From assembly GCA_963556695.1 (NCBI GenBank), contig CAUWAG010000018.1, forward strand, positions 1,550,001 to 1,614,000: DNA of 64,000 bases. Reading direction: 5' to 3'. A program made the translations under genes and the position numbers. Below the pieces are notes generated by a model, which worked only from the letters and a program-made list of their open reading frames with translations, made no database searches and was not told the origin of the DNA. Source of the stretch: Anthostomella pinea. Its lineage: Eukaryota; Ascomycota; Sordariomycetes; Xylariales; Xylariaceae. Of the stretch, positions 24,358 through 26,440 are shown one piece after another (positions within the stretch are counted from its first letter, which is position 1; each line of letters begins with the position of its first letter).

Positions 24358-25004
24358 CTAATAGCCGCGATCGAGATCCTCGGGAGGACCGGGCTGCTCA
24401 TCCCAGAGATGGTGACGGTCGGCAGAGTTGGCGCTGTGTGAAAGGTCAGAAAAAGGATACATCGAAGAGAAGAAAACTCAGTTCTGGTTAGATGTATACT
24501 TACTTGCCGCTGGCCTTGCTTCCTCGCGTCTTCTTCGGCGTGGGAACCTCGACGATGTCGTCATCTTCGCCGTCGTCGTCATCTTCAGCCTGTTCCGCAG
24601 CCTTTCGCTTTCGGGCGGCGGGCGCAGCGCCTCCCTTGGCTGGGGCAGAGGCAGTGGCCTTCTTCGGGGTGCCGCCCTTCTCCTTTCGCTTAAGCTTCTG
24701 CAGATGCTGCCTAGAGAAGGTAGAGATGTTAGTCCAATGCGCAGTAGAAGAGATGCAAGGTGAATGTGAAAATGATAGTTAGTAGTGTGCAGCGAAGGTT
24801 ACTGGTCCTGGAAGCATAATCATAAGAGATCAAGTCATACACGGCAGCAGTATGGGTATAGCTGTAACCCTTCGCGTGCAGCAAGGTCATGACTGCCTGC
24901 CACTCCTCGGAGGTCGGAGGACAGACGTCCATAATTGCTTGAAGCAAGTCCGTTCTTGTCGTGTCGTCCCATACGGTGCGCGCGGTTGCAGCCTTGGGAG
25001 GCAT
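24358..25004 (-). CDS. Small SANT/Myb-like nuclear protein (gene B, 3 exons; carries the shared exons)
   Basis: Exons are 25004-24841 (164 nt, phase 2 end), 24710-24504 and 24433-24358. Introns 24840-24711 (GTATGA..CTAG) and 24503-24434 (GTAAGT..ACAG) give 148 residues. Exon 1 encodes a short helix-turn-helix domain: WDDTTRTDLLQAIMDV, then SEEWQAVMTLLHAKGYSYTH. The junction reads into QHLQKLKRKEKGG, the conserved continuation of this fungal family. Exon 2 continues with a Lys/Ala/Pro-rich nuclear tail (PARKRKAAEQ, acidic DDDGEDDD, VPTPKKTRGSK). Exon 3 ends EDLDRGY. If the last intron is retained, TAA follows at once and the protein ends at SGK (123 residues). Exons C, D and E upstream have donors of the same phase and no second exon of their own, so exon 24710 may be shared. 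Confidence 0.8.
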
Positions 25005-25040
25005 GGTAGACGGTTTCTTGAAACGGTGGACGAGGATGAG

Positions 25041-25120
25041 CTTTGAAAAGGAATAGCTGTGACAAGAGAAGATGGAAGAGGAGAGGTTTGAAAAGGAAAA
25101 GCTGTCACAAGAGAAGGTGG
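25041..25120. repeat. 45-bp-spaced direct repeat just upstream of gene B start
   Basis: A 35-bp unit at 25041-25075 (core tttgaaaaggaa-agctgt) recurs at 25086-25120 with 4 mismatches. It begins 37 nt upstream of the gene B ATG, where a core promoter or 5' UTR would be, so it may duplicate a promoter or leader element. Confidence 0.75.
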
Positions 25121-25344
25121 GAGTGGTGGGTGAGGAGGGAGGGAAGGATGTTGTTTGTGGAAGGAGTGGACCCGGTGTGGCTTATATGCAAAAATGACCG
25201 GGCGACAATGTGGAGTCTGATTGCACACAATGGGAGCTGCACAATGGGCCGTCGCCGAAGCAGTGACGGCAAGCTAAGCCCGGGGGACTCCACGGGGAAA
25301 GCGGGCCCCGGTTGGAAAGGGGACGGGGATGGCAGTGAGCATAC

Positions 25345-25499
25345 TTGAGTGCATTGGCTGAGAATCCGTAGCCCAGGCCGTGCAGCTGCTCAGTGATGAG
25401 TTTCCACTGCGCACCTGTCGGCTTCATCACTGCGAAGGTCGCCATGAGGATATCATGGTGCGTCTCCTCGCTCCAGGAGGTGTATTTTCCCTCCGGCAT
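25345..25499 (-). CDS. SANT-like first exon C (no second exon of its own seen)
   Basis: From ATG 25499 the frame reads MPEGKYTSWSEETHHDILM and continues through QWKLITEQLHGLGYGFSANAL to a donor AA|GTATGC at 25345/25344, phase 2. It covers 51 codons plus 2 nt and matches the whole SANT-like exon of gene B, with W, the DIL helix and the GYGF turn in register. Between here and gene B no exon starting with QHLQ-like sequence exists. Joining to the gene B acceptor at 24710 gives NALKQHLQKLKRK in frame and a 145-residue protein after a 634-nt intron. Reading through the donor gives a 105-residue protein with a nonspecific tail. It could also be a duplicated exon fragment. Confidence 0.6.
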
Positions 25500-25713
25500 G
25501 ATGGTCAGGGCTGTCGAGACATGGAAACGATGTGATGGTTGTTTTGGAAGGTACGAATGTACGAGGTGCAGTAGGTAAATATCAAGGATGAATATGGACC
25601 CTAGTGATGGTGACTTGGGTTCAGGGTGGAGAGGAGAGGGTGTGGGAGGTGAAGAGTCAAAGCTTGGGCAACCTCAGATGCAGGTGTCAGATGAGTAAGG
25701 TACTTAGGCATAC

Positions 25714-25871
25714 TTGAGTGCGGATCCGGTAAAGGTGTAGCCCATCTCGTGGAGAGAGGCCACGATGGTAGCCAACTGCGCAGGGTTGGGCTTCAATGTC
25801 TTCTGGTAGGCAATGAGGATATCCTCATGCACCTCCGGGGTCCAGTCCATGAGGGTGCGGTTGGACGACAT
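25714..25871 (-). CDS. SANT-like first exon D (no second exon of its own seen)
   Basis: ATG 25871 starts MSSNRTLMDWTPEVHEDILI and continues through LATIVASLHEMGYTFTGSAL to donor AA|GTATGC at 25714/25713, phase 2, 52 codons plus 2 nt. The nine bases around the donor are identical to exon C. Unspliced, the frame stops two codons later (TAA), so a 54-residue SANT-only peptide would result. Spliced to 24710 it reads SALKQHLQKLKRK, matching the family, over a 1003-nt intron, giving about 146 residues. A local acceptor at about 25603 (CACTAG) would add only five codons. Confidence 0.6.
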
Positions 25872-26278
25872 GATGGGCGCTCTTGGTCTGTCTTTGCCGT
25901 TGCTCTTGACTAGAGGAGGGTATAGAGTGTATCGGCGATGAAAAGATTGGTTGTAATATTCGAAACGAGTCAGCGATTAAACTTAATTAGCGACGAACTC
26001 GAGTCGTATCGGCGATTCTGGGACGGAAAAGAGGTAAGGTTGTGCGGCGATGGGGGAAAGATAGCACAGGTGGTGTGGCAAATATACAGATATAGTCTAA
26101 AAGCATTGTTATCGTGACCCTGACCAGCAATTGCCTCAGGCTCACTTGTAAAGAAACACGGGCCAGACATTTGCATCACGTAGTGGTCCGTGCGAGCTGG
26201 AGGACGGACTGGAAGTGCAAGAACAAGCAAGAACAACAACACCAGAGTTTTGCAACACGAATAAAACAAGTCCGCCAC

Positions 26279-26440
26279 CTACCGGATGCCGTTCCAGTTT
26301 ACCGAGTAGCCCTGGGCGGCCATGCTCGCCACGATAGCGGCTTGGTCCTCCTTGGTGAACTTGGGGTCCAGGACGTCGTAGATGGATTGGTAGAGAGCAG
26401 CGTTCATCGCATCGTCCCACTTGCTGGAGTTGGGCGCCAT
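26279..26440 (-). CDS. SANT-like first exon E (no second exon of its own seen)
   Basis: ATG 26440 starts MAPNSSKWDDAMNAALYQSI and continues to MAAQGYSVNWNGIR, then TAG at 26281-26279. A donor CG|GTAGGT at 26283/26282 (phase 2) overlaps the stop. It is 53 residues unspliced. The domain matches B, C, D and F in length and position of W, the helices and the GYS turn. Joining CG to the acceptor at 24710 gives GIRQHLQKLKRK in frame over a 1572-nt intron. The E-D gap offers only a weak local acceptor near 25916 (CTCTAG) followed by QEQRQRQ-like sequence. The domain itself is clear; its downstream exon is not. Confidence 0.55.
   Translation of the reverse strand: MAPNSSKWDDAMNAALYQSIYDVLDPKFTKEDQAAIVASMAAQGYSVNWNGIR

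What the first reader, a model, noticed from the sequence alone, without database searches (positions are those of the whole stretch)
24358..26440. Candidate cluster of alternative SANT-domain first exons sharing one constant C-terminal exon
Four minus-strand exons (E 26440, D 25871, C 25499, B 25004) each hold an ATG, one complete SANT-like domain and a donor in phase 2 (GTAGGT, GTATGC, GTATGC, GTATGA). None has a usable acceptor in front of it in a compatible phase, so chaining exons together is disfavoured. Only one recognisable second exon exists downstream of them, at 24710. Joining each donor to it gives R/K/K/V + QHLQKLKRK in frame, the conserved continuation of this family. This is the architecture of variable-first-exon loci, which I do not know in fungi. 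The null explanation is tandem duplication with loss of exon 2 in three copies; shared phase could be ancestral.
Basis: partly seen in the sequence, partly recalled or inferred. Interest (0 to 1): 0.9.

Follow-up and report, generated by a model that had tools for sequence, protein, structure and literature searches.

The report
Fungal array of interchangeable first exons
One gene of a pine-associated fungus appears to carry four alternative starts, each coding for a different version of most of a DNA-binding-like domain, in front of one shared ending, and related fungi show the same layout; arrays of this kind are well known in vertebrates, and I found none described in fungi.

Summary
Four minus-strand exons (E, D, C, B) each have an ATG, an open frame and a phase-2 donor. 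They precede one tail, itself two exons (24710-24504, 24433-24358). The window lies in the Anthostomella pinea genome, whose annotation (ab initio plus homology) already models exon C joined to 24710, skipping B.

Comparative data carry the case. Of 110 homologous proteins scored, 54 have first exon(s) plus a tail: 32 with one first exon, 22 with two to four, never two tails. By my class labels the order G-E-D-C-B-tail never reverses. Linkers between fused exons are not conserved (9-21% identity, exons 48-79%). In Xylaria arbuscula one model joins E, another C and B, to tails 98% identical. Two uninterrupted ORFs on short contigs join one first exon directly to the tail and are probably cDNA.

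Corrections: a first exon alone is not a complete SANT domain, because predicted helix 3 spans the junction. Chaining into B is not excluded. Transcripts and promoters in A. pinea are untested.

Verdict: a fungal variable-first-exon cluster, probably choosing by promoter which domain half is attached to a constant tail. New variant of a known kind.

The parts
26283..26440 (-). first exon E (ATG 26440; MAPNSSKWDD...NWNGIR), donor GTAGGT at 26282, phase 2
   Evidence: E class one clade across genera, 98/99
25714..25871 (-). first exon D (ATG 25871; MSSNRTLMDW...GSALK), donor GTATGC at 25713, phase 2
   Evidence: D class one clade, 89/90
25345..25499 (-). first exon C (ATG 25499; MPEGKYTSW...ANALK), donor GTATGC at 25344, phase 2; joined to 24710 in the annotated protein P0001
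24841..25004 (-). first exon B (ATG 25004; MPPKAATARTVW...HTAAV), donor GTATGA at 24840, phase 2
24728..24732 (-). CTAAC branch-site-like motif before the shared acceptor (AG just before 24710)
   Evidence: fungal branch consensus recalled
24504..24710 (-). constant exon 2 (QHLQKLKRK..., C-terminal two thirds of predicted helix 3 and a charged tail), donor GTAAGT at 24503
   Evidence: helix span
24358..24433 (-). constant exon 3 with the stop codon (acceptor CAG ending at 24434)
   Evidence: reproduces P0001 exactly
28234..28385 (-). neighbouring family member, gene A, exon 1 (MNKNWNDRADKD...EGCR), donor GTAAGT at 28233; not part of the array
   Evidence: coordinates read from the sequence
27340..27814 (-). 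gene A, its own exon 2 (QHFQGLRR... tail), showing a one-to-one arrangement beside the array; later introns not examined
   Evidence: coordinates read from the sequence

Best explanation
The locus is a variable-first-exon cluster. Each of E, D, C and B is a coding first exon, presumably with its own promoter and leader. Its phase-2 donor is spliced over any first exons in between to the single acceptor before 24710. Four proteins of 145-148 aa result. They share the C-terminal tail (conserved QHLQKLKRK, then basic and acidic stretches) and differ in helix 1, helix 2 and the first third of helix 3 of a Myb/SANT-like three-helix domain. Promoter choice would thus decide which DNA-binding (or histone-tail-binding) half is attached to a constant effector tail. 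Shown: anatomy, frame, one end-to-end tail in the genome, the same order of first exons in relatives' models, near-identical tails with different first exons. Inferred: separate promoters, splicing of all four in A. pinea, change of binding specificity.
For: Anatomy and frames. Annotated protein = C joined to the tail, skipping B. Of 110 homologues, 22 models have 2-4 first exons before one tail and 32 have one; no protein has two tails; by my labels G-E-D-C-B-tail, H-E and S-T are never reversed among 45 fused models. X. arbuscula: E->tail (P0077) vs C,B->tail (P0010), tails 88 of 90 identical; X. flabelliformis: D->tail (P0019) vs D,B->tail (P0055), 83 of 94; Monosporascus P0026 vs P0054, 112 of 124. 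Neighbouring gene numbers on one contig complete the array in Nemania NC0429 (P0050 E-D, P0014 B-tail), X. cf. heliscus (P0086 G-E, P0056 D-B-tail) and Diaporthe ilicicola (P0088 H-E, P0009 S-T-tail); D. amygdali P0081 and P0042 are two numbers apart. P0028 (H->tail, 2086-bp contig) and P0074 (E->tail, 932-bp contig) are uninterrupted across the junction, whereas other proteins of that source read through introns (P0017, P0018, P0030), so they are probably cDNA. Linkers between fused exons are less alike than both flanking exons in 53 of 53 pairs from 25 of the 45 fused models. Among 78 AGs only the one at 24711 and two beside it have a CTRAY branch motif. Predicted helix 3 spans the junction in a C-type and an E-type protein.
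Against: No transcript of A. pinea was available; its annotation is ab initio plus homology. Introns of 634, 1003 and 1572 nt for C, D and E are long for a filamentous fungus (recalled). B has phase-compatible open acceptors upstream, one with a loose branch motif, and 45 of 110 relatives' models chain exons. Separate promoters rest only on pyrimidine-rich leaders: best 40-nt stretch 0.80-0.90 CT for the four exons (0.75 for gene A), against a background mean of 0.65 and 95th percentile of 0.80. That P0028 and P0074 are cDNA is an inference; their contigs could not be read. B and C are not single clades in the trees.
Confidence: 0.82

Rival explanations
1. Exon chaining: the exons are spliced one to the next, giving proteins with two to four SANT-like domains before one tail, as many gene models of relatives predict.
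For: 22 of 54 models with first exon(s) and tail are chained, and 23 further models chain first exons without reaching a tail (45 in all); B in A. pinea has open phase-compatible AGs upstream at 25056 and 25101.
Against: The joining peptides are not conserved in length or sequence (group means 9-21% identity vs 48-79% for the exons; lower than both exons in 53 of 53 pairs, of which 3 involve P0004, which has no linker and counts as 0), as expected of translated leaders. 51 of 54 downstream exons have a methionine within 16 residues before the first tryptophan (a loose test). Near-identical tails are found joined directly to one first exon in the same named species. Upstream chain members would lack the second part of helix 3.
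Confidence: 0.09
2. Tandem duplication with loss of exon 2: only B (or C) is a gene and the other first exons are dead or dying.
For: Fragments of these exons are scattered in the genome, so copying is frequent; only one end-to-end exon 2 remains.
Against: E and D are clades across genera, 98/99 and 89/90; the locus exons keep ATG, frame and donor, while 2 of 14 scattered C/D/E copies do; E->tail and D->tail models exist in relatives.
Confidence: 0.04
3. Stand-alone short proteins: first exons are translated into the intron and end there (E at a stop inside its donor, D two codons later), giving truncated domains without a tail that act as competitors.
For: E reads GIR-stop and D reads KYA-stop directly after the donor; H-exon ORFs P0090, P0100, P0102 and P0106 of relatives also end right after GIR.
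Against: The truncated form lacks most of helix 3; C and B read on for 33 and 30 codons; donors and phase are kept, which this use would not need. It could coexist with the main reading.
Confidence: 0.05

Closest known systems
Clustered protocadherins alpha and gamma (vertebrates)
   Same: tandem variable first exons, each spliced in cis to a shared constant set; [quoted passage not shown]
   Different: cell-adhesion ectodomains and far more exons (recalled); here four short exons coding for part of an intracellular DNA-binding-like domain, in a fungus; promoters here not shown
UGT1 cluster and other multiple-variable-first-exon loci (vertebrates)
   Same: array of variable first exons plus common downstream exons (starts of abstracts of PMC1885805 and PMC3325998 in the listing)
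   Different: enzyme; here the split lies inside a predicted recognition-type helix, so the constant exon completes the fold
Myb/SANT-like trihelix domains (plant GT-1, RAD MYB, DMAP1 SANT)
Neighbouring gene A of the same family (window 28385-27340)
   Same: same exon-1 to QHFQ exon-2 split, phase 2
   Different: one first exon with its own exon 2
Alternative-first-exon events counted in fungal RNA-seq surveys
   Same: the event class exists in fungi: 1.1% of events in Sclerotinia sclerotiorum (passage of PMC7749757); named as a class in passages of PMC6176087, PMC5294800, PMC4035056
   Different: counts of events; no array of paralogous coding first exons in the passages seen

Membership tests
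multiple variable first exon cluster (Pcdh/UGT1 type) | tandem paralogous coding first exons, each with its own start codon and a donor of one phase | tested here: met
multiple variable first exon cluster (Pcdh/UGT1 type) | one downstream constant exon set, none between the variable exons | tested here: met
   only end-to-end tail match in the genome search is here; 22 of 22 multi-exon tail-bearing homologues have one tail
multiple variable first exon cluster (Pcdh/UGT1 type) | each variable exon spliced directly to the constant exon in transcripts | tested here: inconclusive
   no A. pinea RNA; models P0001 (C), P0019 (D), P0077 (E) and probable cDNAs P0028, P0074 in relatives
multiple variable first exon cluster (Pcdh/UGT1 type) | a promoter before each variable exon | tested here: inconclusive
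   only pyrimidine-rich leaders seen
multiple variable first exon cluster (Pcdh/UGT1 type) | variable exons individually conserved between species | tested here: met
   for E (98/99) and D (89/90); B and C not resolved as single clades; across orders not resolved
Myb/SANT-like domain | match to a curated Pfam model at its cut-off | tested here: not met
   best 15.7 bits against PF13837, cut-off 27, five proteins; no Myb family among the 15 families listed for the 20 members of A3
Myb/SANT-like domain | three-helix fold of the Myb/SANT kind | tested here: inconclusive
Myb/SANT-like domain | binds DNA or histone tails | not testable with these tools
   needs an assay

The most novel reading that the evidence does not exclude
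A promoter-choice switch conserved through much of the Sordariomycetes, in which one locus expresses, per cell or per condition, one of several DNA-binding halves on a constant regulatory tail (a fungal counterpart of protocadherin-style choice), possibly with stochastic or mutually exclusive promoter use.
Probability: 0.25. Interest if true: 0.95.

Novelty: new variant of a known kind. Interest (0 to 1): 0.84.

Why it matters
Fungal alternative splicing is mostly seen as intron retention and splice-site shifts (for Sclerotinia, passage of PMC7749757; otherwise recalled). A conserved array of coding first exons that swaps the DNA-binding half of a protein would show that the variable-first-exon design is not confined to animals. 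It would give a compact system for studying promoter choice, and it would explain why automatic annotation of this family yields fused multi-SANT models. Public RNA-seq of Xylaria, Diaporthe or Sordaria, where it exists, could test it at once.

Tried and rejected
Pfam gave no confident Myb domain. Rfam gave nothing in the window at gathering thresholds. The larger exon tree does not resolve E, D, B, C or T as single clades; 43 of its 81 inner branches have support under 80, so exon-by-exon orthology between orders is not claimed; the bootstrap of both trees had not settled. Class letters were assigned by me from similarity before the trees, so the 'changes' statistic shows only that the labels cluster. 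The class HMMs were trained partly on the proteins they label. For example they call the upstream exon of Cryphonectria P0022, my class F, a D. The tail pattern missed variant tails in P0038 and P0052 (read by eye), so 'no tail' there is 47 rather than 49. The protein search scored only the 7992 candidates sharing most words.

I considered the first exons being a transposable element, because each has scattered copies. The copies have different ends; 10 of 11 inspected have no shared flanking word longer than 6 nt, and the eleventh (L002) lies in a locally repeated motif. I therefore treat them as fragments in mosaic islands. Two control stretches (2.2 kb beside the array, 3 kb elsewhere) had no copies elsewhere. 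In one search I used a wrong start for gene A (28383; the ATG is 28385, as used); that row is void.

Literature: searches listed no such array in fungi; most listed papers were seen only as titles and starts of abstracts, and the library lacks most subscription papers. Passages were seen in PMC10763133, PMC8230824, PMC6176087, PMC5294800, PMC4035056 and PMC7749757. A 2003 paper on multiple variable first exons (PMC314283) is known to me only from a reference list and is not held. A search for transcriptome support of the Xylaria models listed one paper, not opened.

Full report
What is there. The window is C14:1550001-1614000 of a 53,736,082-base genome in 16 contigs. Its own proteins are recorded as Anthostomella pinea, and contig lengths 8,924,063, 5,428,629 and 2,115,983 equal the largest contig, N50 and N90 of the published assembly (53,727,737 bases, 19 contigs; passages of PMC10763133). 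On the minus strand four exons, E, D, C and B, each begin with ATG and end at a phase-2 donor; joined to 24710 they give proteins of 146, 146, 145 and 148 aa. The constant part is two exons, 24710-24504 and 24433-24358. The genome's own annotation already contains the C version (P0001, Uu.00g065960), which skips B. That annotation used Augustus, GeneMark and homology; 'RNA-seq' occurs 0 times in the main text. So it is a prediction, not proof.

Uniqueness. The 68-aa tail query has 9 matches in the genome; only this place is matched end to end. C2:2735941-2736105 covers 4-67 with a gap and no stop; the other seven cover less or are weak, three of them with a stop. Scattered copies of B at C10 and C2 keep the start of a tail; copies of C, D and E are first-exon fragments. 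Of 14 C/D/E copies read, 2 (L002, L028) keep ATG, frame and a GT at the donor. Neighbouring gene A (28385-27340) has one first exon and its own exon 2, so a shared tail is not simply how the whole family is built.

Splice signals. Between 26270 and 24590 there are 78 AGs; 3 have a CTRAY branch motif and a pyrimidine at -3, all at 24710-24697. The rate over the window, both strands, is 333 of 8201. With CTNAY, 14 of 78 pass, including exon start 25101 in front of B, which is open and phase-compatible. So chaining into B is possible. The introns would be 130 (B), 634 (C), 1003 (D) and 1572 nt (E), the last three long for such fungi (recalled).

Relatives. Three protein searches gave 110 different proteins, all scored (99 were also read by eye). 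Seven are tail-only, 49 have no tail by the pattern used (two of these, P0038 and P0052, have a variant tail), 54 have first exon(s) plus tail: 32 with one, 22 with two to four. No protein has two tails. Three of the 32 are A. pinea's own (P0001, P0002, P0005), and four are unspliced or loosely joined (P0017, P0018, P0027, P0048). Of the 22, two are from Monosporascus, one each from Sordaria, Verticillium, Ophiocordyceps, Magnaporthiopsis, Staphylotrichum and Cryphonectria; the other 14 are from Xylaria, Nemania, an unnamed Xylariaceae, Cytospora, Diaporthe and one record labelled Lasiodiplodia mahajangana. These genera span several orders of Sordariomycetes (recalled, not looked up). By my labels the order among 45 fused models is G-E-D-C-B, H-E and S-T, never reversed. 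A. pinea has E-D-C-B; no G exon was found in the window.

Same tail, different starts. X. arbuscula P0077 is E->tail and P0010 is C,B->tail, tails 88 of 90 identical. X. flabelliformis P0019 is D->tail and P0055 is D,B->tail (83 of 94). Monosporascus P0026 and P0054 differ by one extra first exon (112 of 124). Of nine tail pairs compared, the other six include Cytospora mali P0020 (S,T) vs P0051 (T), 78 of 83, and Nemania serpens P0004 (D,B) vs P0012 (B), 52 of 79; a second X. arbuscula record, P0075, has a tail only 49-55% identical and may be another species. Adjacent gene numbers complete arrays in Nemania NC0429, X. cf. heliscus and Diaporthe ilicicola; strands and distances there could not be read.

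Transcript hint. Proteins of the source marked 'lgn' often read through introns (P0017, P0018, P0030). P0028 (H->tail, 2086-bp contig) and P0074 (E->tail, 932-bp contig) run across the junction without interruption. I infer cDNA. H lies upstream of E in Diaporthe models (P0078, P0081, P0082, P0088), with S and T in the neighbouring gene of D. ilicicola; if the source of P0028 has the same array, its H skips three first exons.

Why not chaining. I compared linkers in five hand-made groups, 25 of the 45 fused models. Linkers average 9-21% identity by group against 48-79% for the exons on either side, lower than both in 53 of 53 pairs. Identity is over the longer length, which penalises length differences; the three pairs with P0004 count 0 because it has no linker. 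The linkers look like translated leaders. 51 of 54 downstream exons have a methionine within 16 residues before the first tryptophan, a loose test; by eye the usual start is missing in P0050, P0056, P0057 (D), P0058, P0073 and the D of the Monosporascus models.

Conservation of each exon. In a tree of 56 exons, E (98/99) and D (89/90) are single clades that include the A. pinea exon; B, C and S need two changes each. A tree of 84 exons including other orders is poorly resolved: E, D, B, C and T need two changes each, all labels together 8 against 52.7 for shuffled labels. Ancient origin of single exons across orders is therefore suggested, not shown.

Mechanism. Most likely each first exon is transcribed from its own promoter and spliced to the tail, giving isoforms that differ in helices 1, 2 and the beginning of helix 3. 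The leaders are pyrimidine-rich (0.80-0.90 in the best 40 nt; background 95th percentile 0.80), which fits fungal transcription starts (recalled) but proves nothing.

What is known. The design matches protocadherin and UGT1 clusters (passages of PMC8230824; starts of abstracts of PMC1885805 and PMC3325998). Alternative first exons as single events are counted in fungal surveys (passages). Searches listed no fungal array; the library is partial.

Side finding. The scattered fragments lie in mosaic islands. In the first 5 kb of one 6.5-kb stretch (C2:2731001-2737500), 13 separate segments match other places at 74-93% identity, besides a ~150-nt repeat with 24 listed copies (40 of 165 candidates scored, so lower bounds). 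A motif CAACCCGTGRTGCCCGG recurs beside the fragments; it occurs 14 times exactly in the genome, 13 of them on C2 and C4, against 0 for the reversed control.

Noticed in passing
L070 (C2:2731001-2737500) and L002, L027, L039: Islands made of roughly 70-380-nt pieces of sequences found on many contigs, with a ~20-nt motif (TTGGCAACCCGTGATGCCCGGA-like) recurring beside the pieces; 14 exact core copies in the genome, 0 of the reversed control. Mechanism unknown.
   Followed up: partly
window 24700-26600: Every first exon of the array has scattered partial copies elsewhere, while 26601-28800 and 36001-39000 have none. Why this stretch is such a frequent source of fragments is unexplained.
   Followed up: partly
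L070:2926-3096: A dispersed ~150-nt repeat with 24 listed copies at 78-91% identity across the genome, perhaps SINE-like.
   Followed up: no
window 28385-27340, minus strand: A further two-exon member of the family (gene A) upstream of the array, with its own exon 2 and a GRGRPRK AT-hook-like stretch (motif recalled); its phase-2 donor could in principle also reach 24710.
   Followed up: no
window 8001-10000 and 16001-18000: GC skew of 0.36 in the first stretch and GC of only 0.40 in the second, against 0.48-0.56 in the other 2-kb stretches.
   Followed up: no
fused proteins such as P0004, P0008-P0011, P0024, P0026, P0054, P0055: Public gene models of this family in many fungi fuse first exons, mostly through what look like translated leaders, and are probably annotation errors.
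   Followed up: yes
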